From: a virus
Virus record (IMG/VR): IMGVR_UViG_3300023278_002686
Span: 120,280-155,054 of that record
Length of the DNA: 34,775 nt
Reading direction: 5' to 3' (one strand)
Shown here piece after piece: positions 432 through 33,765 of this stretch. The position numbers and the translations under genes are program-made. The first letter of the stretch is position 1. Each line of letters starts with the position of its first letter. Under the pieces are notes generated by a model. The model worked only from the letters and a program-made list of their open reading frames with translations, had not been told where the DNA came from and did no database searches.

Positions 432-2653
432 TAGTATCCCCCATAACTTATTTCTTTATTAGCTTTAGAATCTATTAGTTCTCTCAAGTTTTCATTCTCT
501 TTTTTAAGTTCTTGAACTGCTTTAATTAAAAGTCCAATACAATTATTAGCAATCATTTCTTTTTGAGAATCTCCAGAAAGTAAAGGATTAGTATCTTCTG
601 CTATAAATCCAACCATTTGTTGATTAGGATTTTTTGTTAATCCTTGTTTATAATTATAATTTACTATATTTATTTCACTTAAAATATTTAAAGCTGATAG
701 ATTACATATATGTATGTTTTCTTTAAATTCTTCTGAAGAAGTTAAATTAATTGTAGTAGCTTCTATATCACCTTCAAATTTAAATTCATAACCACTTCCA
801 TCTTCTTGAGTAGACGCGAATACCATTGCATTTTCAGAAAGATCATGTCTAATAGTTGATCTTGCAGTTCCAGCTTCTTTAAATCTTAAAGTTGGATCAT
901 CTAAAGATCCATCAATTTCAACAGCTGGAGTACTTCCTTTAAAGGTAACAGTTTCAGTATTTATTTGAAATTTATCAGTTAATTGTCTTATTCCTGTTCC
1001 TGTTCCAGGATCACTATCTGAAGTTAAACTCCAAGTAATTGCTGTTGTTTGCGCTCTACAATATGCATACCATCCATCTAAAGAGAATGTTCCTAATTCT
1101 ACAAATACATCTATAATAAAATTTCCACCATTTTCTTCACATTTAACATTTGTGACTAAACGATCTCCACCTTCATTATAAAAATATCCTTGAACATTAG
1201 CTTCAGTATCAGCAACCCCATTTTGAATTGAAATTACTATGCTACATCTACCTACATGATCAACATTATTATATGCTATTCCTGAAGCACCTAAACCTTC
1301 TAATACAATTCTATCAGCATTAGTAGCTGTTATGGTACATAATTTATACCATTGGGGTGCACCAGTATTATTTCCTGCTTTTTGAGCTGTAAAAGATCTA
1401 GATTGAAAACCACCATTATTATAAAATTTAGCCAATTGAGCATCTAATGAGTCTGTGATAACTAATCCATTTTGATAACCGGTTCCTGATCCTCCGAATC
1501 CAATTCTTGCTACATTGCTTAACCATCCATATTTAGAATATGAATTAACATCCCCAGGATTATAATTATAATAATTTTGTCGTGCAGGGTCCATTTTAAG
1601 ATAATTACCTGTTTCTAATTGTCCATTAGATTGATCCCAACTTGGAACAGCCTCATTATTTGGATTATCTATAATATTTGCTAATTTTTTAGTTGAACCA
1701 GTTAACCCGGTTCTCCAAGAATTATCACTTTCATCAAATTCTAATCTAAAATTTGTAGCGGTCCCGCGTTCTACTTCTAAACCAGCTAAACCCGTTCCTT
1801 GAACTCCAGAACCTGTTTCTTCACTATTCACGGTAATAAATTTATCAATAACATCTAATGTAGTTATATATTCTCTAGGAGCATTTCTATCTCTATCGAT
1901 TAAAAAGATTTCTGATCCTCTAATATCAGATCTTCCTGAAGCTCTTCTAATTTCTGCAATTACTTTTCTAGATCCATAACTTATAAAATTTTCTTCTACT
2001 TGAGGAACTCCATCCTCATCAATATAAATTATATCATTTCTAGCTGATCCACCAGTAGCACTTACTCCACCTACAGGATAAGTTCCTCCACTTACAGTTT
2101 GAGCTCCTTTATAAGTATCTACAATTCCTGAAGCTACTACAAATTGATTAGTAGGAGTAGTTTCTGTAGGATAAACTTTTAATAAGTCTTGATCTTCAGT
2201 AAGTTCTTTTAAATGAGATTCCATTCGTCTAGTTTCATCGAATGAATTTAATAAAACATTTCCAGTGGTAAATTCTAATCTACCTACTACAATATCATCA
2301 GTTAAAATATCTGCTAAAGCAACTTTTTCCCATCCCATATAATTGTTTGTTTGATTTACCCAATCAAACCTTAATATGATAAAAGGTTGACTTACATCTA
2401 CAGCTCCAGTAACTGCTATAGATATATAATCTTGAGTTTCAATTCTAGATCCTACTTCAGTAGTAGAGTCCCAATAAAAAGTCACACCGGGAGAAATACG
2501 AACAGTATTCGCATCTACATATTCTAAAGAAAGTCCTTTATATATTCCTTTTGGAAATAATTCATAATTTAATTTACTAAAACCTTGAGAGGTCGCTGCT
2601 TGTAAATAATCATATGTTAATATTTGATTTCCATAATTGGTTGTATAAGCCAT
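431..2653 (-). CDS. Tail fibre/appendage with C-terminal S74 intramolecular chaperone
   Basis: 740 residues. The last ~110 residues match the peptidase S74 (endosialidase-type) intramolecular chaperone. They contain the SSEEFKENI segment with the Ser...Lys pair expected for self-cleavage, then INIVNYNYK, MVGFIAEDTNPLL and a terminal heptad-rich LIKAVQELKKENENLREL coiled coil. In this family the chaperone trimerises the fibre and then cuts itself off just before the first Ser. The N-terminal ~250 residues look like a baseplate- or fibre-attachment region and the middle is beta-rich, consistent with a trimeric shaft. Start: ATG at 2653 preceded by AGGAG. A late-promoter-like motif lies upstream at 2671-2686. 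It probably binds the host surface; the receptor cannot be deduced. Confidence 0.88.
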   Translation of the reverse strand: MAYTTNYGNQILTYDYLQAATSQGFSKLNYELFPKGIYKGLSLEYVDANTVRISPGVTFYWDSTTEVGSRIETQDYISIAVTGAVDVSQPFIILRFDWVNQTNNYMGWEKVALADILTDDIVVGRLEFTTGNVLLNSFDETRRMESHLKELTEDQDLLKVYPTETTPTNQFVVASGIVDTYKGAQTVSGGTYPVGGVSATGGSARNDIIYIDEDGVPQVEENFISYGSRKVIAEIRRASGRSDIRGSEIFLIDRDRNAPREYITTLDVIDKFITVNSEETGSGVQGTGLAGLEVERGTATNFRLEFDESDNSWRTGLTGSTKKLANIIDNPNNEAVPSWDQSNGQLETGNYLKMDPARQNYYNYNPGDVNSYSKYGWLSNVARIGFGGSGTGYQNGLVITDSLDAQLAKFYNNGGFQSRSFTAQKAGNNTGAPQWYKLCTITATNADRIVLEGLGASGIAYNNVDHVGRCSIVISIQNGVADTEANVQGYFYNEGGDRLVTNVKCEENGGNFIIDVFVELGTFSLDGWYAYCRAQTTAITWSLTSDSDPGTGTGIRQLTDKFQINTETVTFKGSTPAVEIDGSLDDPTLRFKEAGTARSTIRHDLSENAMVFASTQEDGSGYEFKFEGDIEATTINLTSSEEFKENIHICNLSALNILSEINIVNYNYKQGLTKNPNQQMVGFIAEDTNPLLSGDSQKEMIANNCIGLLIKAVQELKKENENLRELIDSKANKEISYGGY

Positions 2654-2670
2654 TTAATAACTCCTATTTT

Positions 2671-2686
2671 CTATAATAATATAGTT
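2671..2686 (-). promoter_or_regulatory. Putative phage late promoter motif (AACTATATTATTATAG)
   Basis: The minus strand reads AACTATATTATTATAG just upstream of the tail-fibre Shine-Dalgarno. It matches the recurrent ACTATATnATnATA motif found before other late-looking genes in the window. It is a variant, not an exact TATAAATA. No factor can be assigned from sequence. Confidence 0.35.
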
Positions 2687-2691
2687 AGTTC

Positions 2692-4113
2692 TTAACTAAA
2701 AGTAGTTTTACTTAATAAAAATGCAAAATTAACATGGAAAGCATTAGATTTAAACTCAATTGGAGGAAAAGTTGAATATGCTAATAAATTATCATTTATG
2801 TCAAATACTCCACATTCAGTTATTTCCATAGTTTGTTTTGTATAATATAAAATTGACATATCTGTCATTCCAGATGGATAAGTATTAAAAGTAATAATAC
2901 CAGTCATATAATTTATGTCAGCATCAATAACTTCATTATCTGGTAATGTATAAGAAAATTTACCAGCTTCATCTGATAGAGTATAATCTTGAAAATTATA
3001 TGTAAAACTAAATCGTATTGATTTTTTTCTTACTTCTGGATAAGTAAGAATAATAGGATTAACTAATGTTGAAATCGTATCTACTGTAACTAATTGTCCT
3101 TTATATTCTGCAACAGCTCCACAATAATCTGTATTTGCATACACTTCATCTATAGAAACATCTGCTTTTGCAATTGGAGTATATAGCGTAGTAGGAATTG
3201 TAGTTGCAATATCTGTATGAGCTCCGATTCCAAATTTCATATAAGAAACTTCTGAATCAAAAGTAGCTGGAACATAATTAGTAGTTGTTAAAGTCTTTAA
3301 CTCAATATCAGTAATTGTATTTACATTATTAGAAGTATCTGCGATCCCTACTAATTGGCAACCTATGTGAGGAACTTCAGTAGCTTTTTTAAGAACATCC
3401 ATATTAGATTTAATAAAATCAAAATAATTAGCTGTCATAGTATATGATAATCCAGTACTTGAATGAGTAACTAATTCGTCTATAACATATTCAATACCTA
3501 CATGTTTTGTAGAAGTTTTAGAAAGTTTAGTATCTAATATCCATCCAGTATCTAATCTTTGAACAGGATCGGAATCTAAAGTTCTATCTTCTTCTAAAAA
3601 TCCAGTAAAATTTTCTTGAGATAAATGAATATGAGTATCAGATTGATTTAAAATTTCTGTTCCTGTTAATAAACTTTGAGTGTGTCTTAATAAATCTTGA
3701 CCATTGTAATAATAAACAAATACCTGCCCAACTCTATCTAAAGCTCTATAAAAAGATTTATATACAATTGCTGTTGCTTTATACGCTAACTTAAAAGCAA
3801 TTGAAGCTACTTCTCTTCTTAAGAATTCTGTAGTACTATTTACTGTAACATCAAATGTAATATTAAGAAGTTCTGTAATTTCTAAAAGTCTTTCATATTC
3901 CATTTTATCAATTACATATAATTCACTTTTATCTTTTATAGTATCTATTGCTAATGAAATTTCAGGGTTACATGACTGTACAAAATCTAACCAAAAATTA
4001 TTATTTTGTATAATAATTGGAAGTCTTTTTTCCATAAAAACAGTTTCTAAATATTGAACTACTGAGGTGCATGAGATACTATTTATTGTACAACTTCCTG
4101 TATATAATGCCAT
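2692..4113 (-). CDS. Putative baseplate/tail-fibre connector protein
   Basis: 473 residues, ATG at 4113 with a clear AAGGAG. The N-terminal third (around residues 75-130) contains a TEFLRREVASIAFKLAYK-type segment reminiscent of tail protein I/baseplate proteins. The C-terminal ~40 residues (ECGVFDINDNLLAYSTFPP, then a hydrophobic end) resemble the segment seen in phage tail-fibre N-terminal (DUF3751-like) domains, where a GLFD-x-x-GNLLA motif is followed by a Pro-containing loop. The central region is beta-rich. Position between the amidoligase/small structural genes and the S74 fibre supports a role joining fibre to baseplate. Exact T4 equivalence is not claimed. Confidence 0.7.
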   Translation of the reverse strand: MALYTGSCTINSISCTSVVQYLETVFMEKRLPIIIQNNNFWLDFVQSCNPEISLAIDTIKDKSELYVIDKMEYERLLEITELLNITFDVTVNSTTEFLRREVASIAFKLAYKATAIVYKSFYRALDRVGQVFVYYYNGQDLLRHTQSLLTGTEILNQSDTHIHLSQENFTGFLEEDRTLDSDPVQRLDTGWILDTKLSKTSTKHVGIEYVIDELVTHSSTGLSYTMTANYFDFIKSNMDVLKKATEVPHIGCQLVGIADTSNNVNTITDIELKTLTTTNYVPATFDSEVSYMKFGIGAHTDIATTIPTTLYTPIAKADVSIDEVYANTDYCGAVAEYKGQLVTVDTISTLVNPIILTYPEVRKKSIRFSFTYNFQDYTLSDEAGKFSYTLPDNEVIDADINYMTGIITFNTYPSGMTDMSILYYTKQTMEITECGVFDINDNLLAYSTFPPIEFKSNAFHVNFAFLLSKTTFS

Positions 4114-4122
4114 TTAAACTCC

Positions 4123-4524
4123 TTATGTAGGTATAGATAACGTTAAATCTATTTGTAAAGTACTTTCTGCAAAATTCTCATATGGTCCATCTGAAAATCT
4201 TTCTGCAAAAATAAGTACATCTTCTGCTGTATTAGTTATATAATATCCAGTAATTCTAGTAATAGTTCCTGTAAATGAAAATATCTGTGCTGCTAAAATA
4301 GCTGTAGTAGCGGCACTTGAACTTGCAATTGTCCAATCGTTTGGATCTATTGTTATTTCTGTATATCCTCCACCTGATATTTCTGTATATTGAGAAACTT
4401 CATCTGATTTAGATGGAGTTCTATCATCTGAATATAACTTAAGCTTTAAAGCCGTATAAGTTTTAATTCCTAATAATCTTTTAAATATTTCTTGTTCACC
4501 TAAATAGGTAGTAACACACGCCAT
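4123..4524 (-). CDS. Small beta-rich virion protein
   Basis: 133 residues if translation starts at the ATG at 4524. That start sits 7 bases after GGGAGGA and overlaps the stop of the upstream gene (TAATG), so I prefer it to the in-frame ATG at 4539, which lacks a site. The C-terminal half (GYYITNTAEDVLIFAERFSDGP) resembles a recurrent family of small phage structural proteins with a GYY...AERF..GP pattern. No membrane segment or catalytic motif is visible. Its place in the tail/fibre operon suggests a fibre or baseplate accessory protein; the role is unknown. Confidence 0.7.
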   Translation of the reverse strand: MACVTTYLGEQEIFKRLLGIKTYTALKLKLYSDDRTPSKSDEVSQYTEISGGGYTEITIDPNDWTIASSSAATTAILAAQIFSFTGTITRITGYYITNTAEDVLIFAERFSDGPYENFAESTLQIDLTLSIPT

Positions 4525-6758
4525 TAATTTTCCTCCCATGTAATTTTAAAATTCTTATCTAAAAGTCCCTTTTTCCCGTTTAAATTAATTACTCGAGTTC
4601 CGTCTTTATTAAGATACCTAATAATATCATACTTTGGCTCTAAAATAACTTTAAAATTCTTATCTAAAAGTCCAACTTTTCCATTTAATTTAATTACTCG
4701 AGTTCCATCTTCATTTGAATTCCCAATACGGTCATAAATTGGTTCTAAGACAACTTTATAATCTTTATCTAAAATTCCTTCTTTCTTGTTTAATGCAAAT
4801 GTTCGAGTTCCATCATCATGTGGATTCCAAATCGCATCATATTTAGGTTCCAAAATAACTTTATAATCTTTATCTAAAAGTCCCTTTTTCCCGTTTAAAT
4901 TAATTACTCGAGTTCCATTTGAATCAGGCCCATCAATAAAATCATATTTAGGTTCTACAACGACTTTAAAATCTTTGTCTAAAAGTCCCTTTTTCCCGTT
5001 TAAGTTAATTGCTCGAGTTCCGTCTTTTTTAGGAGTATTTAGAATGTCATACTTGGGTTCTACAACAACTTTATAATCTTTGTCTAAAAGTCCAACTTTT
5101 CCATTTAAGTCAATTACTCGAGTTCCGTCTAAATTAAGATTACGTATAGCATCGTATTTAGGTTCTACAACGACTTTTAAATTTTTATCTAAAATTCCCT
5201 TTTTATCATTTAAAATAATTACTCGAATTCCATCTTCATCTTTAGTTGGAGGACCAATATAATCGTATTTAAGTTCTACAACAACTTTTAAATTTTTATC
5301 TAAAAGTCCATATTTCCTGTTTAATTCAATTACTCGAATTCCATCTTCATCTGGAGGACCAATATAATCGTAAATAGGTTCCAAAATAACTTTATAATTC
5401 TTATCCAAAAGTCCAACTTTCCCGTTTACTTTAATTACTCGAGTTCCATTTGAATCAGGCGCATCAATAAAATCATATTTAGGTTCTAGGATAACTTTAG
5501 AATTCTTGTCTAAAAGTCCCCATAATTCACCATCTTGTATTTGAATATCCTCTTTAGAACTTTTTGTAAATATAACTAAATTCTTACATATATAATCTTC
5601 ATATATCACACCTCTTGCTAAATAAATAATTTTTTCATTAAATTTAAATTTAATGTTTTTAACGATTCCACTATCTATCTGTATTCCATCTAACAAACAA
5701 TTTTCTATAAGACTTGGGCTATAATTTCCACTTATTAATTCTCCACCTATAATTTCAAGATCTCTATTTTTAGTGATATTAATCTCAAGATCTCTATAGA
5801 CAACGTCTGGTTTTAATATCCAGTTACCACCTACTTTAGATAATAACATTTCTTTCATTAATTTATTTCCAATCACTTTGTCATTAAATTTAAAAACTTT
5901 AATACGATCTAAATTTTTAGTATTATCTAATAAAGAATTTAAAAGTCTATTAATTTTTAATATATATTCTTTTTTCTTAAATTCAGGATCAATCGCTAAT
6001 TGTACGAAATATATAAAGTCTAAAATTTGAAATTTTGTTTCTGTAAATTTTTTATGATAATTAGTTCCACCTAAATATCTAAATTCTAAATAAGGATTAG
6101 CTGAATTTAATTTCATAAAATTAATTCCATAATATTTTTCCTTAGGTACAAAGCTTTCTAAATCTCCTAAAAATTCTGTATAATCTTTTTTAATAATATC
6201 TTTACCTTTTTCTAATTTTTGTAAAATTTCAAGTATCATAGATTTTGCATATTTATTATTTTTTCTTTCTTTAAAAAATTTATATATTTTGCCTTCTTCC
6301 ATAAATAAGACTAATTTTAAAATATCAATACTTTTGATATTCTTTAAAGAAATTCCTATATGTAACCCTGTAGATTTATTAGTAGTTCCAAATTTATTAA
6401 TTGCTTTAAAAATAGTTTGCATATTATCCAGAAATGTTTTTAATTTTATAGGAGGAGATATTAATTCAATTCCATATTTTCCTGTTATAGAAGAATCTGG
6501 TTCAGTATGCCAATTTTTAGATGTTTTACCTCCATGATATTGGCTAAATTGTTCAATTTTTCCTAAAGATTTTAAGTCTTTTACAAAATTGTCAGTATTA
6601 TCATCTTTAAAAGATACTTCAAATTCTCCGCCAATTAGTCCGTCGAAATGGTTTAGAACATCTTCTTTTTCTTTTTTAGAAACTTTTTCTAAAAATAATT
6701 GTTTTGAGATAAAGTCATTAGTTTTCAAGTTTGAATGTAAATATTCATTAAAATTCAT
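4524..6758 (-). CDS. Amidoligase-like domain fused to ten WG-type repeats
   Basis: 744 residues. Residues ~40-140 carry hallmarks of the Amidoligase_2 family (glutamine-synthetase-fold COOH-NH2 ligases): GGEFEV (43-48), W83 followed by EPDSS, YGIELISPP (95-103) and TGLHIGI (130-136). These enzymes are predicted to form amide bonds using ATP, for example on peptides or cell-wall material. From ~residue 405 to the end there are ten tandem ~34-residue WG-type repeats of the form G-LLDK-x-(Y/F)KV-x-(V/L)EP-x-YD. Only the first keeps the actual Trp (WGLLDK); the others have KG, VG, YG or EG. ATG at 6758, upstream AAGGAAAAAAC. Substrate unknown. The location between baseplate wedge and fibre genes is unusual for an enzyme. 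Confidence 0.75.
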   Translation of the reverse strand: MNFNEYLHSNLKTNDFISKQLFLEKVSKKEKEDVLNHFDGLIGGEFEVSFKDDNTDNFVKDLKSLGKIEQFSQYHGGKTSKNWHTEPDSSITGKYGIELISPPIKLKTFLDNMQTIFKAINKFGTTNKSTGLHIGISLKNIKSIDILKLVLFMEEGKIYKFFKERKNNKYAKSMILEILQKLEKGKDIIKKDYTEFLGDLESFVPKEKYYGINFMKLNSANPYLEFRYLGGTNYHKKFTETKFQILDFIYFVQLAIDPEFKKKEYILKINRLLNSLLDNTKNLDRIKVFKFNDKVIGNKLMKEMLLSKVGGNWILKPDVVYRDLEINITKNRDLEIIGGELISGNYSPSLIENCLLDGIQIDSGIVKNIKFKFNEKIIYLARGVIYEDYICKNLVIFTKSSKEDIQIQDGELWGLLDKNSKVILEPKYDFIDAPDSNGTRVIKVNGKVGLLDKNYKVILEPIYDYIGPPDEDGIRVIELNRKYGLLDKNLKVVVELKYDYIGPPTKDEDGIRVIILNDKKGILDKNLKVVVEPKYDAIRNLNLDGTRVIDLNGKVGLLDKDYKVVVEPKYDILNTPKKDGTRAINLNGKKGLLDKDFKVVVEPKYDFIDGPDSNGTRVINLNGKKGLLDKDYKVILEPKYDAIWNPHDDGTRTFALNKKEGILDKDYKVVLEPIYDRIGNSNEDGTRVIKLNGKVGLLDKNFKVILEPKYDIIRYLNKDGTRVINLNGKKGLLDKNFKITWEEN
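4530..5540 (-). repeat. Ten tandem ~34-codon WG-type repeats within the amidoligase gene
   Basis: The 3' third of the gene at 4524-6758 is built of ten imperfect repeats of about 102-108 bases. They are recognisable from the recurring plus-strand words ctaaaagtcc, attactcgagttcc and ataatc. They encode LLDK...EPxYD units. Several neighbouring units are near-identical in DNA while others have diverged, which suggests recent expansion or shuffling by recombination. Confidence 0.85.
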
Positions 6759-25641: not shown

Positions 25642-26016
25642 TTATCCTAAATGTATTCTCTCGAAATTGGCTATGTTTCTAATTAAATCAAAAAGTCCAG
25701 AACAAATAGAATTATCTTCAGTGCTCACAATAATTACCTTTCCTTTTATTTTTAAATCTTTATCAATTTCCCAATCTCTTATTTCTCGTTCATATTTTTT
25801 ATCTGCGATAAAAACATTATAATCATAATCATGTAAAATATGATATTCTGAACTTTCTGCATCAGTATAAAATTCTTTAGTAAATTTTTCAATTAATTTC
25901 ATTTTTTCTTTAACATATTCTATAGAAGGTTGAGGGTTATCTTCTTGCCAATAATATAAATTACAAATAAAACTGCTTGAACTACTATTACTTACAAATG
26001 TTTTTCTTGATTTCAT
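25642..26016 (-). CDS. SNSSSSSF-tagged protein 1
   Basis: 124 residues. Begins MKSRKTFVSNSSSSSF, the shared N-terminal tag of nine proteins in this window. The body after residue 16 is unlike its siblings. It includes an acidic/aromatic part (YYWQEDNPQP), a helical charged middle and a C-terminal VIIVSTEDNSICSGLFDLI...RIHLG segment that looks like a small alpha/beta domain. No catalytic motif is recognised and no signal peptide is present. The ribosome binding site is weak (GGAAG). It is followed 11 bases later by the dNMP kinase gene. Confidence 0.8.
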   Translation of the reverse strand: MKSRKTFVSNSSSSSFICNLYYWQEDNPQPSIEYVKEKMKLIEKFTKEFYTDAESSEYHILHDYDYNVFIADKKYEREIRDWEIDKDLKIKGKVIIVSTEDNSICSGLFDLIRNIANFERIHLG

Positions 26017-26017
26017 G

Positions 26018-26296
26018 CTAATACTTCCAATCTATTATTTCATCAGAGATTCCTATTGAATCTAAGTATTGTCCCATATCAAAATTATCCATAGAAGTAT
26101 ATCCTTCTATATAATCTTTTTCATCATATATAGACCAAGTATATTCACTTGAAGAATTTTCTCCAACCTCTTCTAAAAACATATCAGATTGTTCATAAGC
26201 TATAATATCTTCGATTTGCCATTCATGAAGATTTTTCTTTAAAATAACAAAACTGGAACTACTAGAATTACTTACGAAAGTTAATCTTTTTTTCAT
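26018..26296 (-). CDS. SNSSSSSF-tagged protein 2
   Basis: 92 residues, the smallest of the nine. Begins MKKRLTFVSNSSSSSF. The body is very acidic and aromatic (DIIAYEQSDMFLEEVGE) and ends in GYTSMDNFDMGQYLDSIGIS...IDWKY. That end resembles the last part of tagged protein 3 (LEKIGIKGPSIDWYVDGG), so these two bodies are probably distant relatives. The ATG at 26296 lies four bases after the GroES-like stop; ribosome binding site GGAAT. Confidence 0.8.
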   Translation of the reverse strand: MKKRLTFVSNSSSSSFVILKKNLHEWQIEDIIAYEQSDMFLEEVGENSSSEYTWSIYDEKDYIEGYTSMDNFDMGQYLDSIGISDEIIDWKY

Positions 26297-26299
26297 AGA

Positions 26300-26590
26300 T
26301 TATTCCTTAGAAACAAATCCTATTATGCTATCTTCTTGAATTGCTGAATAATCTGCATTATCAAAAGTCATAGTAGTAATTGATCTTTTATTATAATAAA
26401 CAATATCATTTACATTAATATGTTCACATTTAACACCTACATTAATAACCTTTGCTTTTTTAAGATTATTTGGTTTTGCTTCTCTAGCTGTTGAAGGCAT
26501 AAAAATTCCTCCAGCTGATTTTTCTAAATCTTTTGTTTCTTCTTCTAAAGGCTCAATAATAATGTTTTTTCCTAATAATTTTATATTCAT
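26300..26590 (-). CDS. GroES-like co-chaperonin
   Basis: 96 residues from the ATG at 26590, which has AAAGGAG upstream; an earlier in-frame ATG at 26638 would add 16 residues overlapping the previous gene and lacks a site. Features of Cpn10/GroES: LGKNIIIEPLEEE at the N-terminus, SAGGIFMPSTAREAKP (mobile-loop region), KVINVG, VNDIVYYNKR and a terminal DSIIGFVS strand. Phage co-chaperonins (T4 gp31, RB49 CocO) modify host GroEL so that it folds the capsid protein. Here the gene is embedded among the tagged genes rather than next to the capsid gene. Confidence 0.86.
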   Translation of the reverse strand: MNIKLLGKNIIIEPLEEETKDLEKSAGGIFMPSTAREAKPNNLKKAKVINVGVKCEHINVNDIVYYNKRSITTMTFDNADYSAIQEDSIIGFVSKE

Positions 26591-26603
26591 TCTATCTCCT
26601 TTT

Positions 26604-26912
26604 TTATCCATTTCGTCCTCCATCAACATACCAATCAATTGAAGGACCTTTAATGCCTATTTTTTCAAGATCTTGTTTAATGATCTCAATATTTTCGTTA
26701 ATCGTTTTATCATGATCTAAACTTCCTGGACTTACTCCTATTATATAATGATCATAATATTCATCAATACCATAAACTATTTCTAAATCAATTTTTTTGT
26801 CATAAATAATATTTTCATACTCTTCTATAATATCCATATCATCAATTATAGTTCCCAAAATACAAAAACTACTACTTGAACTATTGCTCACAAAAGTTTG
26901 TCGTCTTTTCAT
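26604..26912 (-). CDS. SNSSSSSF-tagged protein 3
   Basis: 102 residues. Begins MKRRQTFVSNSSSSSF, ATG at 26912 after AAAGGAG. Its first ~32 bases overlap the 3' end of the NADAR gene in another frame, so the tag-coding DNA also encodes the last residues of NADAR. The body is acidic (DDMDIIEEYENIIYDKKIDL) and its end (EKIGIKGPSIDWYVDGG) resembles that of tagged protein 2. Function unknown. Confidence 0.8.
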   Translation of the reverse strand: MKRRQTFVSNSSSSSFCILGTIIDDMDIIEEYENIIYDKKIDLEIVYGIDEYYDHYIIGVSPGSLDHDKTINENIEIIKQDLEKIGIKGPSIDWYVDGGRNG

Positions 26913-27408
26913 TAATTCTCTCCTTTATTTTTATAGAAGATTTTATTAAATCTTCTCTTAATTTTGTAAGAATATATCCTAAAAGATTTTCTCCTCTCCA
27001 ATTCTCTTTATTCATAATTTTTGGATTATCTTCAGCTAAACCTACTCCCCATATAGAATCATAAGGACTAGCTTCAACTAATGTTTTTCCTTTAGTTTTA
27101 AATAAATTATCTAATAATAGATGATCTTGCGTAAATTTAAAAAAATTACCCTGATAAACAATATCAAATTTATGTTGATCCCAAATTATTTGGTTAAAAT
27201 TTTTAATTTTTCGTCCTAAATCTTTTTGTTCTCTTGGATGTTTTGTGTTAAAAATTAATTTAGCGGTTTCAAAATCATGAAATAAAATAGCTTTTTGATA
27301 CATCATATATTGTTCAGCACAATTATATTCAATGGCATTTTTGTCTACAAAAGTAGATTTTTTCCATTGACTTAATGGTCCTTTCCAAAAAAACTCAAAC
27401 TTTTCCAT
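26881..27408 (-). CDS. NADAR-family ADP-ribose-related hydrolase
   Basis: 175 residues, ATG at 27408 after AAGGAAA. It matches the NADAR (YbiA-like) family: FFWKGPLSQWKKSTF, YNCAEQYMMYQKAILF, DLGRKIKNFN..IWD, NFFKFTQD, LVEASPYDSIWGVGLAED and NWRGENLLGYILTKLR. Members cut N-glycosidic bonds in nucleotide-derived compounds, and some remove ADP-ribose from guanine. In phages such enzymes could undo host ADP-ribosylation defences; that role here is inference. The C-terminal ~10 residues are encoded by DNA overlapping the start of tagged protein 3. Confidence 0.88.
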   Translation of the reverse strand: MEKFEFFWKGPLSQWKKSTFVDKNAIEYNCAEQYMMYQKAILFHDFETAKLIFNTKHPREQKDLGRKIKNFNQIIWDQHKFDIVYQGNFFKFTQDHLLLDNLFKTKGKTLVEASPYDSIWGVGLAEDNPKIMNKENWRGENLLGYILTKLREDLIKSSIKIKERINEKTTNFCEQ

Positions 27409-27418
27409 TTAATTTTCC

Positions 27419-27829
27419 TTAATAATATGATTCTTTATATACAAAGATATTTTCATCTTCATAATCTATACCAATAGCTACTAAAGCATTTTCTCCTATA
27501 TCTCCGGTATCATCATGAGCATAACCACCTATAAATTTACCACCACAATCTCTTATTTTTTTAACGAGAGATTTTAATTCATCATTATAAATGTCCTCTA
27601 GATTATCCCAACCCATTTCTTCTAAGAATTGATCATAATCATAAATATCTTTTTTACTAACTAAAGCTTTAGCAATTCCTTTAGCTAAATCATATAGTAT
27701 ATTATCTTTTTCTATTTTAAATATTTCTTTTAAAATATATTCTGAAGTTAATTCTAATTCAGGATTTTTAATTCCTATAATAAAGCTACTAGAACTACTA
27801 TTTGAAACAAATGTTTTTCTTCTTTTCAT
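27419..27829 (-). CDS. SNSSSSSF-tagged protein 4
   Basis: 136 residues. Begins MKRRKTFVSNSSSSSF. There is no ribosome binding site; a TTGACA-N16-TATTAT promoter lies so close that transcription would start at or very near the ATG, so a leaderless message is likely. The body ends with GYAHDDTGDIGENALVAIGIDYEDENIFVYKESYY. Its middle is helical and acidic (YDQFLEEMGWDNLEDIYNDE). It shares the tag only, not the body, with its siblings. Confidence 0.8.
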   Translation of the reverse strand: MKRRKTFVSNSSSSSFIIGIKNPELELTSEYILKEIFKIEKDNILYDLAKGIAKALVSKKDIYDYDQFLEEMGWDNLEDIYNDELKSLVKKIRDCGGKFIGGYAHDDTGDIGENALVAIGIDYEDENIFVYKESYY

Positions 27830-27835
27830 ATTAAT

Positions 27836-27863
27836 ATAATATATGATTTTTTAAAATTGTCAA
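27836..27863 (-). promoter_or_regulatory. Sigma70-like promoter TTGACA-N16-TATTAT before tagged protein 4
   Basis: The minus strand has a perfect -35 (TTGACA, 27858-27863) overlapping the stop of the upstream gene and a TATTAT -10 (27836-27841) with 16 bases between. The expected start falls at the ATG at 27829. It has the same TATTAT -10 as the promoters at 32576 and 34300, suggesting a shared early class. Confidence 0.7.
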
Positions 27864-28195
27864 TTTTTTAATTGAAAAAATATTTTATTTGGAACTTCAT
27901 CAAAATATTTAAAAAGAGCAGGACAAAGCCACCCATCCATATCTTCGTATGAATAATAACAACCACCATTTTCTTCATATAATTTAGTTAAATATCCATC
28001 GTTTCCAGGAAAATTATGTTGTGAAAAATATAAATCAAATTCATCTGTTGGTTCATCGAATTTATTACAGAGAAGTTCGTCTATTATTTCAGGTATTCCA
28101 AATACAAAAGGTTCTCTAAATAATTTTTTAGCTAAATCATCGAAAACCCAAGTATCTTTAAACTTATAGGGGTATATAACATTAATTGCATTCAT
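27860..28195 (-). CDS. DUF6717-like protein
   Basis: 111 residues from the ATG at 28195, seven bases after GGAGG; the ATG at 28201 is too close to that site. The pattern NAINVIYPYK...TWVFDDLAKKLFREPFV.GI, then FDLYFSQHNFPG and DGWLCPALFKYF is what I associate with DUF6717 proteins found in many bacteria and phages. Its activity is unknown. It lies between the AAA ATPase and the first tagged gene of the second cluster. Confidence 0.72.
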   Translation of the reverse strand: MNAINVIYPYKFKDTWVFDDLAKKLFREPFVFGIPEIIDELLCNKFDEPTDEFDLYFSQHNFPGNDGYLTKLYEENGGCYYSYEDMDGWLCPALFKYFDEVPNKIFFQLKN

Positions 28196-28227
28196 AATCA
28201 TTCCTCCTTAACTATGAAATGGAGCTT

Positions 28228-29697
28228 TTAAGAAGATCCACTTTTTAATAATTTACCACTCTTAAGAGCTATTTTTAACCATGTTTCCCATTTAGGATTT
28301 TGTTTATGAGACAAGTAACGAGTTAAACAAAATTTAAATAATCTAAAATCCATTCCACCTGCAAATTTTTGATTTTGTCTTAACCATTCTAACATATATT
28401 CTTTTTCATTTAAAGCAATATCTGGCTCAACCGCTTCTAATTTCGTTTTAATTAAATCTAATATTTGATCAGTACTTAATTTAAAACCGAATGGAGTTAA
28501 ACGACTTGCTATCGCTCCAGGTACTTCATATAAATTACTAATAATTATTAATTGAGATTCAAATACAAAATTATTATAGCTTCCAACTCCCGCATCACTT
28601 CCCATAGTAGTTAAATCTAATACTTCGTCTGGATCTGTAGGATCTTCCATAAATTGAGTAGATTCAGTTCTTACTGTATATGTAACTCTATAAGGAGTTT
28701 CACACGAAGCTTTAAGAATATTTACGGCATTTCTATTTTTTAATATTTGATCGTTGTCATCTAATACAAGAATTTTATCAGTTCTGTTTTCATATAAAAC
28801 TTGTAATAAACCAGTCATTCCAGCGATAGCTCCTGATTTAAGAACAAATCCAGGATCTGGTCCTAATATCTTATTCACTAAATACGATTTTCCAATACCA
28901 GGAGTTCCATATATAATTACGCCTTTAGCTTTATCGTGTTTAGAATTCTTAATTAATGTAAGTTCAGCTTCTAAGAATTCAAAGTTTTCTAAATGTTCAT
29001 TTTCAATCTCTAATGAGTCGTTAAAAGATTGAGCAGCTGCAGAATTTCCTTGATCTACCATTACCACTTGATCTTCAACTCCAGGATTAATTCTAATAGG
29101 TCTAATTCTTTTTGTCGCAAGATTATTATCATTTATATATTGATAACCTTTAATCCAAAAATTATCAAAATTTAATATTATATTACGGGCTAATCCAGCA
29201 GTTTTTGCCCATTGCTTATATGCTTGATATACTATATTTCTGGGATTATTTATAAATATATTATTTGCATCAGAGTTAGTAGTCCATGATTCAAAATTTT
29301 CATCTAGTCTTTGTTCTTTTAATCTATCTTGAAATCTACTTCTACTTTCATATTTTCCAAATATAAAATCTTTTAATATTCCTATTACTTGAAGAGTATT
29401 AATTTCATTACTTAAAAAAATAGTTTTATAAGGTTTAACTGAAATTTTATTAAAATAGTCTACAGAATATATTTGATCTCCTTTTTCTTTTAAAGAAAAA
29501 TTTATTCTTAACGCTTTATTTCCACCATCAAAATAAGATGTATAATTCATAAAATATCCATAAATATTCTTATATGTTTCAGGAATTTCTACAGATGATA
29601 ATGGCTTTTTAATTTGTTTTGATAATACTTTAAGCATTAAATTAACCATTTTTTTAGTCTTTTCTCTACTAAAAGTTGCTTCATTCAAAAGTTCCAT
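28228..29697 (-). CDS. AAA-type ATPase
   Basis: 489 residues, ATG at 29697 after AAGGAG. A Walker A motif GTPGIGKS occurs at 264-271 and a Walker B-like ILVLDDND at 309-316. A sensor-1-like Asn (IIISN) and a candidate arginine-finger region (GAIASRLTPFG) follow. The first ~240 residues have no known domain and could bind a partner. It is transcribed with the 173-residue gene just upstream behind a late-promoter motif, so it may work in virion assembly or DNA handling late in infection. The specific role is not known. Confidence 0.82.
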   Translation of the reverse strand: MELLNEATFSREKTKKMVNLMLKVLSKQIKKPLSSVEIPETYKNIYGYFMNYTSYFDGGNKALRINFSLKEKGDQIYSVDYFNKISVKPYKTIFLSNEINTLQVIGILKDFIFGKYESRSRFQDRLKEQRLDENFESWTTNSDANNIFINNPRNIVYQAYKQWAKTAGLARNIILNFDNFWIKGYQYINDNNLATKRIRPIRINPGVEDQVVMVDQGNSAAAQSFNDSLEIENEHLENFEFLEAELTLIKNSKHDKAKGVIIYGTPGIGKSYLVNKILGPDPGFVLKSGAIAGMTGLLQVLYENRTDKILVLDDNDQILKNRNAVNILKASCETPYRVTYTVRTESTQFMEDPTDPDEVLDLTTMGSDAGVGSYNNFVFESQLIIISNLYEVPGAIASRLTPFGFKLSTDQILDLIKTKLEAVEPDIALNEKEYMLEWLRQNQKFAGGMDFRLFKFCLTRYLSHKQNPKWETWLKIALKSGKLLKSGSS

Positions 29698-29700
29698 ATA

Positions 29701-30222
29701 TTAGTTTTCTCCTTTTCTAATTTTATTAGCTTGCTGATATGTTTTATTTTCTACTACTAAGAATGTATTAGTAGCCATAGACGTTTTAGGTTTTAATACA
29801 TATTTATAATTTAATCTTTTTTCTAATTCTCTACATAAAATTACATATACTTTTTTTCTTGATTCTATATTTCCAGCTGCTATAAAACTAATAGACATTG
29901 GATTAAAATTCTTTGTATAATATTCAACACATTTTCCAACAGTACTTAATATATGAGCTTGATGAGCTCCAGCTCCATAATTTGGTACACCCATACCTGC
30001 TTCATTACTACTAAACAATACAGTTGCACTAAATAATTTAATTTTTCCTAAAAGATCTGTTTTAAATGTTTTTGAAGATTTGTCATTATATGAAATTGTT
30101 ACTGTATATTCTACTTCCCTATCTTCTATTGGGACTTTAAATTTAGCAATATAATTTTTTTTATTATTTTTTTTAACACTTATTCTAAAATATTCATCAA
30201 ATAATTCATTTAATTTTATCAT
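29701..30222 (-). CDS. Unknown phage protein upstream of the AAA ATPase
   Basis: 173 residues, ATG at 30222 after GGAGA. The N-terminal ~55 residues look like a beta-rich domain with charged loops. A central GVPNYGAGAHQAHILSTVGK segment (His-rich and Gly-rich) precedes a helical C-terminus. No known motif. Four bases separate it from the AAA ATPase, so the two probably work together. A late-promoter-like motif precedes it. Confidence 0.7.
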   Translation of the reverse strand: MIKLNELFDEYFRISVKKNNKKNYIAKFKVPIEDREVEYTVTISYNDKSSKTFKTDLLGKIKLFSATVLFSSNEAGMGVPNYGAGAHQAHILSTVGKCVEYYTKNFNPMSISFIAAGNIESRKKVYVILCRELEKRLNYKYVLKPKTSMATNTFLVVENKTYQQANKIRKGEN

Positions 30223-30234
30223 TTAAGTCTCCAT

Positions 30235-30252
30235 CAATATTTATATAGTCAA
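30235..30252 (-). promoter_or_regulatory. Putative late promoter (TTGACTATATAAATATTG)
   Basis: The minus strand reads TTGACTATATAAATATTG, with the exact TATAAATA core. It lies between the membrane peptide gene and the 173-residue gene and is among the closest matches to the T4-type late promoter in the window. Confidence 0.5.
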
Positions 30253-30271
30253 TTAAATGAATTATTTTTTT

Positions 30272-30499
30272 CTAACTTTTAATTAAACAACCTGCCCAAT
30301 ATACTAATAATCCAGGAATAATTCCTACCTCGCATAAAATAATTCTAATTATATTAAGAGCTATTCCTTTAGCATTCATTGGATCTAAACTTTCAATTAC
30401 TCCTATAATACCTAAATAAAGCATGAAATACAATGCTCCATACAACATAAGAAATATTCCACCTATTATTAATAAAATACTAATTAAATTTCTAATCAT
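30272..30499 (-). CDS. Small two-helix membrane protein
   Basis: 75 residues, ATG at 30499 after AGGAG, overlapping the end of tagged protein 5 by eight bases. Two hydrophobic segments (about 4-34 and 46-72) leave short loops (SLDPMNAKG). It could be a holin-like, superinfection-related or membrane-anchoring protein; no motif decides. It closes the largest tagged-gene operon, suggesting a functional link, perhaps membrane attachment. Confidence 0.65.
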   Translation of the reverse strand: MIRNLISILLIIGGIFLMLYGALYFMLYLGIIGVIESLDPMNAKGIALNIIRIILCEVGIIPGLLVYWAGCLIKS

Positions 30500-30959
30500 T
30501 TAAATCTCCTAAATAACATTTTATTGCTATATCTAATTCTTTTTTAACAGCTTCCATAAAAACCTCTATAATAGCTTTTCTTATATCTCGATCTTTCAAA
30601 AATTCTTTAATATCTGGAAGTTCTTTTCCTTCTCTTAATAGCCATACATTATCTCCGATTTCATCATAAATATCCTCATTATAAGGGCCACCATGACCAC
30701 CATCTTGATATTCTAAAACCTTTGAATTATTCTTCCAATCCCAGCCCCCACTATCTGAAATAAATTCAGTTAAATAAACTTTATCCTCTGAAGAAAAAAG
30801 AGAATCTACGTTTACTCCAGCATTCATAATCCTTTGTTTTTGTTCTTCATTTAATTCAACATAATTATATTGTATAAAATATTCCTTAATAATTTCATCA
30901 CCAATTACAATAAAACTTGATGATGAACTATTACTTGCAAAAGTTGTTCTTCTTTTCAT
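30492..30959 (-). CDS. SNSSSSSF-tagged protein 5
   Basis: 155 residues. Begins MKRRTTFASNSSSSSF (Ala instead of Val at position 8), ATG at 30959 after GGAGG. The body includes VYLTEFISDSGGWDWKN and LEYQDGGHGGPYNEDIYDEI, rich in Gly, His and acidic residues, and a helical end (FMEAVKKELDIAIKCYLGD). The GGHGGPY stretch could be a metal or loop site but this is not shown. Function unknown. Confidence 0.8.
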   Translation of the reverse strand: MKRRTTFASNSSSSSFIVIGDEIIKEYFIQYNYVELNEEQKQRIMNAGVNVDSLFSSEDKVYLTEFISDSGGWDWKNNSKVLEYQDGGHGGPYNEDIYDEIGDNVWLLREGKELPDIKEFLKDRDIRKAIIEVFMEAVKKELDIAIKCYLGDLND

Positions 30960-30962
30960 ACT

Positions 30963-31322
30963 TTAATCCTCCTCAAAAATTTCAAAATCAAAATTAGCAT
31001 CATAAGCATAATCTCTACTATAAAAATCTGTTATGTATGCTCCAGGATAATCTCTATTCACTGAAACAAGTCTTTGATATAAATCATCATAGATATCCTC
31101 ATCTTCATAATCATAAAATAAAGAATTAGCATCTAATTGTTTGATGTATTGTTTAAATTTTGTAGTTGCTTGAATAACCTTAGATAGTTCAGAAATTATA
31201 TCAGTTACTTTAATTATACTACGATTAGCACAATACTTTTTAAATTTTTTTATATCTAATTCGTTCTTTAAAATAAAAGAACTACTTGAACTATTAGATA
31301 CAAAAGTTAATCTACTTTTCAT
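30963..31322 (-). CDS. SNSSSSSF-tagged protein 6
   Basis: 119 residues. Begins MKSRLTFVSNSSSSSF, ATG at 31322 after GAGGAG. The body is acidic and Tyr-rich: LDIKKFKKY, FYDYEDEDIYDDLYQRLVSV and DFYSRDYAYDANFDFEIFEED, with a helical middle. Only the tag is shared with neighbours. Function unknown. Confidence 0.8.
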   Translation of the reverse strand: MKSRLTFVSNSSSSSFILKNELDIKKFKKYCANRSIIKVTDIISELSKVIQATTKFKQYIKQLDANSLFYDYEDEDIYDDLYQRLVSVNRDYPGAYITDFYSRDYAYDANFDFEIFEED

Positions 31323-31682
31323 TTAACACTCCTCATACTGAAATTCTATTCTAGTAATATTTTTAGGTACTTTAGTCATATCAATACTTATAAACTTTTC
31401 ATATTTTTCAAGAATACAATCACTGAGATCAATTTTTTCCGACTCTTTTTTTACTAAAATATCTGAAGACACTTGTTCTAACTTATGGCCTAATTTCTTT
31501 TCCCATTCTATAATTTCAGAAGGAATTTTCATACTAAGATTCATACAATCTACTTTTATTTTTAAAAGTTTATCAAAATGAGGACATATATCTTTTACTA
31601 CAATCTTTTTTATTTCAGTAGTATATCCAGTTACATAACTACTAGAGGAACTATTACTTACAAAGGTTAATCGTTTTTTCAT
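31323..31682 (-). CDS. SNSSSSSF-tagged protein 7
   Basis: 119 residues. Begins MKKRLTFVSNSSSSSY (Tyr instead of Phe at 16). The body has four Cys (DICPHFD, DCMNL, SDCIL, YEEC) with no obvious zinc pair, plus a basic/helical middle. ATG at 31682 after GGAGA; its first base is shared with the end of tagged protein 8, and its stop lies right at the start of tagged protein 6, so the cluster is translated as a packed operon. Confidence 0.8.
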   Translation of the reverse strand: MKKRLTFVSNSSSSSYVTGYTTEIKKIVVKDICPHFDKLLKIKVDCMNLSMKIPSEIIEWEKKLGHKLEQVSSDILVKKESEKIDLSDCILEKYEKFISIDMTKVPKNITRIEFQYEEC

Positions 31683-32038
31683 TATCTATAATCTCCGTGA
31701 CAAAAAGATTTATCATTTTCACTAAGCACATCTTCTACTTTACTAAAAAAGTTTTGATTAAAATCATAACTATCTTCTTCATTATAGTCTTCAAACTGAC
31801 TTAATAAATTTTCAGCAACACTCTCAATATCAGAACATTCCCCATCTTCCAGATATCCTTGAAGAACAAATACTTCTGTATTAAGAAATTTTGTTTCCTC
31901 TTCTAAGAATGCTTCCTTAGTTAGTTGTTTTTCTAGTTCAGAAAAATCTTTAAATACTTCATCAAAATCATCTTTTGAAACCAGGGCTACAAAAGATGAG
32001 GATGAACTATTGCTCACAAATGTTAATCTACGTTTCAT
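31682..32038 (-). CDS. SNSSSSSF-tagged protein 8
   Basis: 118 residues. Begins MKRRLTFVSNSSSSSF. The ATG overlaps the end of tagged protein 9 by four bases (ATGA) and is preceded by GGAGG. The body is strongly acidic (EEETKFLNTEV, LEDGECSDIESVAENL, FEDYNEEDSYDFNQ) and would carry a high negative charge, as many DNA-mimic or inhibitor proteins do; that comparison is only suggestive. Confidence 0.8.
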   Translation of the reverse strand: MKRRLTFVSNSSSSSFVALVSKDDFDEVFKDFSELEKQLTKEAFLEEETKFLNTEVFVLQGYLEDGECSDIESVAENLLSQFEDYNEEDSYDFNQNFFSKVEDVLSENDKSFCHGDYR

Positions 32039-32553
32039 TTTACAAAGTCCTCCAATTCATAAATAGTATTAAATTTATCTTTCATCTCTTGTTCAATATC
32101 TTTCTTATTAATATTAAATTTCTTAATAATATATTGATTAAGAGTATTAGGGGATATTTCGGTTAATTGACATATAGGACATTGTAAAGAAGAAATTTCA
32201 TATTCTATATAATCTTCAATATAGTCTTTTATTTGATCCTCATCCCATTTTTCAAATTCTTTTAATTTAGAAGTATTTTGTTCAAACCATCTTATATAAT
32301 CAGCATCATTTGGATATTTTATTAGAGATTCTTGAGACTTATTTACAGTAGACTTTAACTCTTCTCTTACTTGTTCTTTAATATCTACTTTAACATCTAA
32401 AACATGCCCATCACATATAACATGTCCATTAGAACATTCAACCATTCCTAAATCTGTCGGGCACGCATCCATGCCAGAATCATGATGTCCACATACTTCA
32501 CAAACATAACTTGAAGAACTTGAATTACTTACAAACGTTTTTCTTCTTTTCAT
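32035..32553 (-). CDS. SNSSSSSF-tagged protein 9 with zinc-finger-like motifs
   Basis: 172 residues, the longest of the nine and first in its operon. Begins MKRRKTFVSNSSSSSY. Right after the tag, CEVCGHHDSG...C...CSNGHVICDGH contains C-x2-C and further Cys/His residues. A second C-x2-C (LQCPICQ) occurs near residue 130. Together they suggest zinc ribbons. The middle is helical and charged. The promoter at 32576 lies 16 bases upstream, with AGGAG as ribosome binding site. Confidence 0.8.
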   Translation of the reverse strand: MKRRKTFVSNSSSSSYVCEVCGHHDSGMDACPTDLGMVECSNGHVICDGHVLDVKVDIKEQVREELKSTVNKSQESLIKYPNDADYIRWFEQNTSKLKEFEKWDEDQIKDYIEDYIEYEISSLQCPICQLTEISPNTLNQYIIKKFNINKKDIEQEMKDKFNTIYELEDFVK

Positions 32554-32667: not shown

Positions 32668-33765
32668 CTATATCTCAAAGTAAGGACATTCTCTACAATT
32701 ATGAGAATTGTTCTTTTTAGTATTTAATAAAGCTTTTCTAAATTGAATAGTCTTTTCATGATGCCAAACATCTTTTAAAAAATCAGTATCTTTAGTCATA
32801 GGAATTCCTTTAGTCCAATTATGATCTATAACTTTATATGCTAATTTAATAGAAGAATTATCTATTACTTTATGGGTATGTCCTTCACTAAATGAACAAG
32901 GATAGAAAATTCCATCAGTATCAAAATAAGAACTAAATAAAGTAGATTCACAATCTTCTACATAAATTCTTTTTGCATCATAGTCAAGATCGTCTTTAAT
33001 TGATTCAAGATACTTTAATGTGCCACAACTATCAAATCCAATTCCTATATTTTTTTCTGTAGCATAGTTAATTATGTTATTCATTTGATGTTGAGTTATA
33101 ATTTGATGATCAATACCTCTACCTTTTTTCTTAAGAGCAAGAAATACAATAGCTGTCATATTTTTTAACCGAGGATCTGATTTTATATCATCTAATATAT
33201 TAAATACATCAAAATAAGTTTCTTGGGAAATTACATAATGCATATTTACAACTTTTAATCCGGCTTTAGATAATCGATCAATACTATTGAAACATTTATC
33301 TTTATCACCGTGATAACTTACCGCGCAAGCTCCCGCTAATAAAGTTATTTTTTGAGCAGTTTCTTCAGATATATTAGCTACAGTTAAATTAGGAATAACT
33401 CCTTTAGATCTACAATATTCCATCATTCGAAAAGTGTCTGGGTTTGCTTCACATTTAGCATCTACTCCTAAAGCTACTTGATTTAAAATAGGAAGTAATT
33501 TATCTATTATATTAGTAAATGTTTCATAAGACATATTTTTTCCATTAGGATTATTTGCTTTGTAACAATATTCACAATTATTATCACATGATGTAGTAAT
33601 CTCTATATCAGCAATTTCAGGAGATGGTGCCATTATAGGATCATCTTCTGTTTTTGTAGTTTTACCCCATCGATAAAACTCTCCAGTTTCTTTATCGAAA
33701 GTATAATTATACTTTTCAGATATAACTGCTTTTTTCTTATCACTCTCTTTTATTATAAATTTCAT
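32668..33765 (-). CDS. Radical SAM enzyme with SPASM-like C-terminus
   Basis: 365 residues, ATG at 33765 after GAGGAG. The Fe4S4/SAM-binding motif C-DNN-C-EY-C (Cys60, 64, 67) is canonical C-X3-C-X2-C. Later Cys residues (DSCGT, EDCEST, FYPCSF and the terminal NCRECPYFEI) follow the pattern of SPASM-type auxiliary clusters, where GIFYPC-like loops bind iron. Enzymes of this group modify peptides, including Ser or Cys residues, or RNA. It is encoded just before five tagged genes. The substrate is not known. The first ~45 residues, before the core, are unrecognised. Confidence 0.82.
   Translation of the reverse strand: MKFIIKESDKKKAVISEKYNYTFDKETGEFYRWGKTTKTEDDPIMAPSPEIADIEITTSCDNNCEYCYKANNPNGKNMSYETFTNIIDKLLPILNQVALGVDAKCEANPDTFRMMEYCRSKGVIPNLTVANISEETAQKITLLAGACAVSYHGDKDKCFNSIDRLSKAGLKVVNMHYVISQETYFDVFNILDDIKSDPRLKNMTAIVFLALKKKGRGIDHQIITQHQMNNIINYATEKNIGIGFDSCGTLKYLESIKDDLDYDAKRIYVEDCESTLFSSYFDTDGIFYPCSFSEGHTHKVIDNSSIKLAYKVIDHNWTKGIPMTKDTDFLKDVWHHEKTIQFRKALLNTKKNNSHNCRECPYFEI

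What the first reader, a model, noticed from the sequence alone, without database searches (positions are those of the whole stretch)
25642..32553. Nine paralogous phage proteins share an invariant N-terminal tag, MK-x-R-x-TFVSNSSSSSF, but have different bodies
Seen directly: genes at 25642, 26018, 26604, 27419, 30492, 30963, 31323, 31682 and 32035 all begin with K2, R4, T6, F7, S9, N10 and S11-S15. The only changes in the block are V/A at 8 and F/Y at 16, plus variation at 3 and 5. After residue 16 the bodies mostly share nothing and are mostly acidic. At each of the six Ser positions both the AGY and TCN codon families are used across the set (for example position 9: AGT, TCA, TCT, AGC). Moving between these families needs more than one base change, so the serines are held by selection on the protein, not by recent copying of DNA. 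A tag kept on otherwise unrelated cargoes suggests sorting to a compartment or the virion, a common modification or cleavage, or binding to one shared partner. I recall similar openings in unnamed phage and bacterial proteins, with no function attached.
Basis: partly seen in the sequence, partly recalled or inferred. Interest (0 to 1): 0.88.

Follow-up and report, generated by a model that had tools for sequence, protein, structure and literature searches.

The report
Phage enzyme's shared protein tag
Many large phages put one nearly invariant 16-residue tag at the start of two to ten otherwise unrelated small proteins and almost always also carry one particular radical SAM enzyme, which suggests that the enzyme recognises and chemically modifies the tag; nobody seems to have described this.

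Summary
Nine genes, all on the minus strand, start with MK-x-R-x-TF(V/A)SNSSSSS(F/Y), and their bodies share little or nothing. The tag is not peculiar to this phage. One codon pattern alone overflowed a scan of viral contigs, while 84,980 cellular genomes gave three real cases, all in MAGs.

The main new result is a partner. In tag loci the commonest untagged neighbour is one radical SAM/SPASM family (53 loci; next family 15). It lies directly upstream of the tag array here (32668-33765). It occurs in 40 of 50 tagged virus records against 1 of 41 controls, and that one match is weak. Starting instead from the enzyme, 76 of 78 loci have tag genes nearby, elsewhere in the record, or (one) truncated at a contig end. 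Cultured T4-like phages (RB43, RB16, Lw1, KP15, Matisse) looked like exceptions but carry two tagged proteins each.

The enzyme model's nearest solved structures include the peptide maturases SuiB, TigE, PqqE and EpeE. In the one tagged protein modelled, residues 1-11 are disordered ahead of a folded body.

Best reading: a phage-encoded, RiPP-like, one-enzyme-many-substrates system that modifies the tag. The link is well supported. Modification itself, its chemistry and its purpose are inferred. Ten tagged records lack the enzyme.

The parts
32668..33765 (-). radical SAM / SPASM-like enzyme (phrog_7293 family), directly upstream of the tag array; proposed to recognise and modify the tag
   Evidence: phrog_7293 E 4e-103; PF04055 7e-5 and PF13186 8e-4, both below Pfam's own cut-offs; CX3CX2C at C60/C64/C67 plus conserved C247, C272, C290, C360; AF2 pLDDT 89, nearest solved structure SuiB with its peptide
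32035..32553 (-). tagged protein, 172 aa, Cys-rich (zinc-ribbon-like) body; tag codons at 32506-32553
   Evidence: member of the largest body cluster, 38 members; AF2: residues 1-11 disordered, rest folded
31682..32038 (-). tagged protein, 118 aa; tag at 31991-32038
   Evidence: body is a singleton
31323..31682 (-). tagged protein, 119 aa; tag at 31635-31682
   Evidence: body is a singleton
30963..31322 (-). tagged protein, 119 aa; tag at 31275-31322
   Evidence: body is a singleton
30492..30959 (-). tagged protein, 155 aa; tag (V8A variant) at 30912-30959
   Evidence: body cluster of 6
27419..27829 (-). tagged protein, 136 aa; tag at 27782-27829
   Evidence: body cluster of 24
26604..26912 (-). 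tagged protein, 102 aa; tag at 26865-26912
   Evidence: body cluster of 2
26018..26296 (-). tagged protein, 92 aa; tag at 26249-26296
   Evidence: body cluster of 25
25642..26016 (-). tagged protein, 124 aa; tag at 25969-26016
   Evidence: body cluster of 3

Best explanation
The N-terminal tag (wider consensus M-K-[I/V/T]-R-x-G-F-V-S-N-S-S-[S/T]-[S/T]-S-[F/Y]) is the recognition sequence, and most likely also the modification site, of one phage-encoded radical SAM/SPASM-type enzyme. One enzyme would act on two to ten small, mostly acidic phage proteins that have nothing in common but the tag, much as one RiPP maturase can serve many precursors with a shared leader. Shown: the tag, its fixed N-terminal position, its conservation, and the reciprocal genomic association with this enzyme family in diverse viruses. 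Inferred: that the enzyme binds and modifies the tag (most likely within the invariant S9-N10-S11-S12 stretch, read by K2/R4/F7), and that the modification gives all these probable host-takeover proteins a common chemical property. The chemistry and the purpose are unknown.
For: (1) Of all untagged ORFs in tag loci the enzyme is by far the commonest family: 53 loci, next 15, usually on the same strand beside the tags. (2) 40 of 50 large tagged virus records carry it; of 41 tRNA-selected control records, none has the tag and one has a weak partial enzyme match at E 1e-7 (Fisher p 3e-15). (3) Searching by enzyme gave 78 loci: 67 contain strict tags, 3 variant tags (L326, L381, L382), 5 have tags elsewhere in the record (T4-like L328-L330, L342, and L353), and 1 contig starts inside a tag-family gene (L379). 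271 of 272 distinct tags in these loci are on the enzyme's strand. (4) Among 50,697 isolate records, 173 match the enzyme and 174 and 175 match the two tagged families, with nearly the same host counts; accessions were not matched one by one. (5) The enzyme model's best PDB neighbours include SuiB with its precursor peptide, TigE, PqqE and EpeE; NCBIfam matches are mostly radical SAM maturases. (6) Only tag positions 3, 5 and 6 are more alike within than between genomes, for pairs with different bodies, as expected for a genome-specific reader. (7) In one modelled tagged protein residues 1-11, although conserved, are disordered.
Against: Ten of 50 tagged records lack the enzyme by two profiles, including two with nine and five tags (G002, G022). 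Contigs may be incomplete, but another route or an enzyme-independent role is possible. One 321 kb record (G098) has a divergent enzyme and no tag, and one fragment (G097) has the enzyme and no tag. Two further radical SAM genes lie just outside the window. No modification has been observed. The enzyme model has no winged-helix RRE at its N-terminus (four strands), and no protease or exporter recurs beside it, so it is not a textbook RiPP cluster. One published Klebsiella phage has this gene split in two (PMC9960720), so it may be dispensable in the laboratory. Within-genome similarity of positions 3-6 could also reflect shared ancestry of tag DNA.
Confidence: 0.7

Rival explanations
1. The tag is a sorting signal, for example packaging into the capsid like the T4 capsid-targeting sequence, or delivery to another site; the radical SAM gene merely travels with these accessory genes.
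For: An N-terminal signal on many unrelated cargoes fits targeting, and T4-like phages do use a short N-terminal capsid-targeting sequence (own knowledge). Some tagged viruses are T4-like (11 of 50 records over the Gp23 cut-off).
Against: Most tagged records show no T4-type capsid match, so a single virion receptor is unlikely. A passenger gene would not be expected to recur with the tag in such varied viruses, including ones where enzyme and tags lie about 20 kb apart. No cleavage site like that of the T4 signal is apparent.
Confidence: 0.12
2. The tag binds the radical SAM enzyme as a docking or regulatory peptide, but the chemistry is done on something else (a small molecule, or a different residue or protein).
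For: It explains the genomic link and the conserved flexible N-terminus. Some family members also match viperin and MoaA models, which act on nucleotides (own knowledge).
Against: The closest folds are mainly peptide-modifying enzymes. K2 and R4 would suffice for docking, yet S9, N10, S11 and S12 are 99-100% invariant.
Confidence: 0.1
3. The tag is just the first strand of one ordinary, very divergent domain family.
For: Residues 13-17 form a strand of the body in one model, and positions 17-18 are usually I/V.
Against: 338 proteins fall into 90 body clusters, 60 of them singletons. Conservation is strongest in the part predicted to be disordered. Lengths run from 65 to 399 aa.
Confidence: 0.04
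4. Conservation acts on DNA or RNA (a translation-start element, or a recombination seam for swapping bodies).
For: AGY codons are enriched at S9 and S11 (80% and 75% against 38% in bodies).
Against: Both Ser codon families occur at every position, and start codons vary (ATG, GTG, TTG). The amino acids, not the bases, are invariant.
Confidence: 0.03

Closest known systems
SPASM-type radical SAM peptide maturases of RiPP pathways (SuiB, TigE, PqqE, EpeE)
   Same: CX3CX2C motif, additional conserved C-terminal cysteines, SuiB-like predicted fold, and genes next to their probable substrates.
   Different: The probable substrates are two to ten folded proteins of 65-399 aa in one virus, not a short precursor; no RRE-like N-terminus, protease or exporter was seen; sequence similarity to named maturase models is weak.
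Prochlorosin system (one lanthipeptide synthetase, many precursors with a conserved leader and variable cores; own knowledge)
   Same: One enzyme, many substrates sharing only a conserved N-terminal segment.
   Different: Different enzyme class, viral, and the variable parts are whole protein domains.
Radical SAM enzymes that mature proteins (anaerobic sulfatase maturase anSME, QhpD; own knowledge)
   Same: The target is a residue in a protein; anSME can act on serine.
   Different: Those serve one substrate family each; here unrelated families share a tag that carries no sulfatase motif.
T4 capsid-targeting sequence (own knowledge)
   Same: Short N-terminal sequence on unrelated phage proteins.
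   Different: Different sequence and no apparent cleavage site; linked here to an enzyme rather than to a head protease.
phrog_7397
   Same: Unannotated PHROG family; its first positions match the tag region of several window proteins, and 73 of 130 diverse tagged proteins match it.
   Different: It is an unnamed cluster of unknown function; the tag is not described there as a module.

Membership tests
Radical SAM superfamily | CX3CX2C cluster motif in a TIM-barrel-like domain | tested here: met
   C60/C64/C67 invariant in 26 homologues; model matches radical SAM structures with E <= 1e-5; PF04055 matched by 20 of 26 members at E <= 0.01
SPASM subgroup | C-terminal auxiliary Fe-S domain | tested here: inconclusive
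   SPASM matched by 15 of 26 at E <= 0.01, the window member below Pfam's cut-off; only about four conserved extra cysteines (C247, C272, C290, C360), so it may be a reduced (Twitch-like) form
RiPP maturase system | Substrate carries a conserved leader or recognition segment and is encoded with the enzyme | tested here: met
   Reciprocal association of tag and enzyme; that the tagged proteins are the substrates is itself inferred
RiPP maturase system | RRE (winged helix) for leader binding, common but not universal | tested here: not met
   Residues 1-49 of the model are four strands without helices
RiPP maturase system | Short precursor peptide that is cleaved and usually exported | tested here: not met
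   Tagged proteins are 65-399 aa with sizeable bodies; no protease or exporter family recurs in the loci
RiPP maturase system | Enzymatic modification of the substrate | not testable with these tools
   Needs mass spectrometry
T4-like capsid-targeting sequence | N-terminal signal removed by the prohead protease, protein inside the virion | not testable with these tools
   No virion proteome found in the open papers searched

The most novel reading that the evidence does not exclude
A previously undescribed viral post-translational code: a single phage radical SAM enzyme installs one modification on a shared N-terminal tag of a whole set of unrelated host-takeover proteins, giving them a common reactive or binding group during infection.
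Probability: 0.5. Interest if true: 0.95.

Novelty: new variant of a known kind. Interest (0 to 1): 0.86.

Why it matters
Hundreds of phage proteins with no recognisable domain (none of 130 diverse ones matches Pfam) could be grouped by one tag and one enzyme. Because RB43, RB16 and Lw1 are cultured E. coli phages carrying both, the idea can be tested now. If confirmed, it would be a viral system that marks many different proteins by one radical chemistry, with possible use as a portable peptide tag.

Tried and rejected
Literature: no paper in the library holds 'SNSSSSSF', and 'SNSSSS' gave only unrelated papers. tblastn with the tag alone failed, probably because of the low-complexity filter. 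The search for related loci with the nine-protein alignment gave nothing. PPR-repeat and serpin hits to the enzyme profile are spurious repeat matches. TATAAATA late-promoter sites are no more frequent than chance. ORFs of about 243 aa beside tags in enzyme-less contigs looked like a replacement enzyme but are different families, such as an RNase HII-like protein (the RNase HII name is from sight, not a search). A VWA-like protein between the two tag genes of T4-like isolates is not enriched in tag loci. DUF7227 proteins in two enzyme-less contigs were not pursued. The modelled tagged protein resembles no solved fold. 'MGFVSN' starts look like an annotation effect: a Met at tag position 5 with a non-ATG start. 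Untagged homologues of the bodies are rare and mostly cut off at locus ends or carry degenerate tags.

Full report
WHAT IS IN THE WINDOW. Their alignment has invariant M1 K2 R4 T6 F7 S9 N10 S11-S15. The window is the end of a 155 kb virus record with exactly nine matches to the tag pattern and none to the reversed control. By blastp at E 1e-3 the nine bodies belong to nine different clusters, and none reaches a Pfam cut-off. The array sits beside tail and baseplate genes, an anaerobic ribonucleotide reductase, a GroES-like protein, a NADAR protein, a deoxynucleotide kinase and four tRNAs, so this is a large tailed phage. Directly upstream of the first tag gene is a 365-aa radical SAM protein (32668-33765, phrog_7293).

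HOW WIDE THE TAG IS. The same pattern in 84,980 cellular genomes gave seven stretches, and only three hold real tags, all in MAGs. In the viral loci 338 distinct tagged proteins were collected. The tag is always at the N-terminus; the proteins form 90 body clusters, 60 of them singletons; 96% of bodies are acidic, against 46% of untagged neighbours. That first profile was biased by the search pattern. It was therefore repeated in 78 loci found through the enzyme alone, scoring every ATG, GTG or TTG start. Scores were bimodal: 295 starts matched at least 9 of 13 positions and none matched 7 or 8. K2, R4, S9, N10, S11 and S12 are 99-100% conserved, position 16 is always F or Y, and S13-S15 tolerate T, A or C. 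Position 6 is G in 93%; the T of the window is a local variant.

THE PARTNER. Clustering all untagged ORFs of the tag loci gave one clear leader: the radical SAM family in 53 loci, the next family in 15. Tested across whole records, 40 of 50 large tagged records carry it. Of 41 control records selected by a tRNA pattern (52-608 kb), none has the tag and one has a weak partial match (p 3e-15). Only 11 of the 50 tagged records pass the cut-off for the T4-type capsid, so the pair is not confined to one lineage. Among records with four or more tags, 32 of 34 have the enzyme (counted by hand).

THE RECIPROCAL TEST. A scan with the enzyme alignment returned 78 viral loci. 67 hold strict tags within the stretch and 3 hold variants (SSASS, or H7 in place of F7). 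Four T4-like loci and L353 seemed to lack it, but a search of the whole records found tags. In RB43 they are RB43ORF116c and ORF121c, in Matisse CPT_Matisse113 and 118, roughly 20 kb from the enzyme. A further contig, L379, begins inside a tag-family gene. One fragment (G097) and one 321 kb record with a divergent enzyme (G098) remain without a tag. In isolates, 173 records match the enzyme and 174 and 175 match the two tagged families, with near-identical genus counts; these are closely related phages, so they are not independent cases.

WHAT THE ENZYME RESEMBLES. It has CX3CX2C and four further conserved cysteines. Its AF2 model (pLDDT 89) matches SuiB bound to its precursor peptide best, then other radical SAM enzymes including TigE, PqqE and EpeE. 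Not every neighbour is a peptide maturase: DesII ranks fourth and HydE tenth. Named maturase models match only weakly.

HOW IT PROBABLY WORKS. In the one tagged protein modelled, residues 1-11 have pLDDT below 50 and the rest is well folded. A conserved but flexible N-terminus is typical of a sequence read by a partner. Among pairs of tags in one genome with different bodies, positions 3, 5 and 6 are more alike than between genomes, while positions 13-18 are not. This fits a reader that varies from genome to genome, although shared ancestry of tag DNA could contribute. Since the bodies share nothing, any common action must fall on the tag or next to it, and the invariant S9-N10-S11-S12 core is the natural candidate. 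I therefore propose that the enzyme binds K2/R4/F7 and modifies a residue in the core. Binding, modification, chemistry and benefit to the phage are all inference.

LIMITS. Ten of 50 tagged records lack the enzyme by two profiles. G019 shares a near-identical capsid hit with G007, which has the enzyme, so its absence there may be due to an incomplete contig; G002 with nine tags and G022 with five are harder to explain away. No completeness estimate was shown for these records. One published phage has the enzyme gene split (PMC9960720). [quoted passage not shown] No prior description of the tag was found, but the library holds only open-licence papers.

Noticed in passing
L395 (record G098, 321 kb), ORFs at 936-1178, 1185-1559, 2361-3152, 3687-4550, 4575-4949: Several unrelated ORFs near a divergent copy of the enzyme start with a similar motif (YSFL or YNFL followed within a few residues by E, e.g. 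MIQYSFLFE, MKTYSFLNE, MIKYSFLLTEA, MLIKKYSFLTEA). It resembles the T4 capsid-targeting start and may be a second, different N-terminal tag.
   Followed up: no
G000:C1:115479-116836, just outside the window: Two more radical SAM genes (PF04055 E 2e-16 and 3e-19) lie next to each other in the same virus.
   Followed up: no
G002 (L012, L035), 132 kb: Nine perfect tags, with S or N at position 6 in several, but no radical SAM protein found by three searches. It carries a DUF7227 protein, also seen in enzyme-less L013.
   Followed up: partly
272 tag genes in L324-L401: Serine codons at tag positions 9 and 11 are mostly AGY (80% and 75%) against 38% in the bodies; the reason is unknown.
   Followed up: partly
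KP15 67826-70042 and RB43 69755-71974: A large protein (MIDAS site annotated in KP15; RB43ORF119c) lies between the two tag genes in these T4-like isolates; VWA proteins are not enriched in tag loci generally.
   Followed up: partly
window 26300-26638 and 26881-27408: A GroES-like co-chaperonin (PF00166, E 7e-11) and a NADAR protein (E 3e-49) lie between tagged genes.
   Followed up: no
window 4524-6758: A 744-aa protein in the tail region has a weak match to a phage amidoligase family (phrog_7469, E 7e-4).
   Followed up: no
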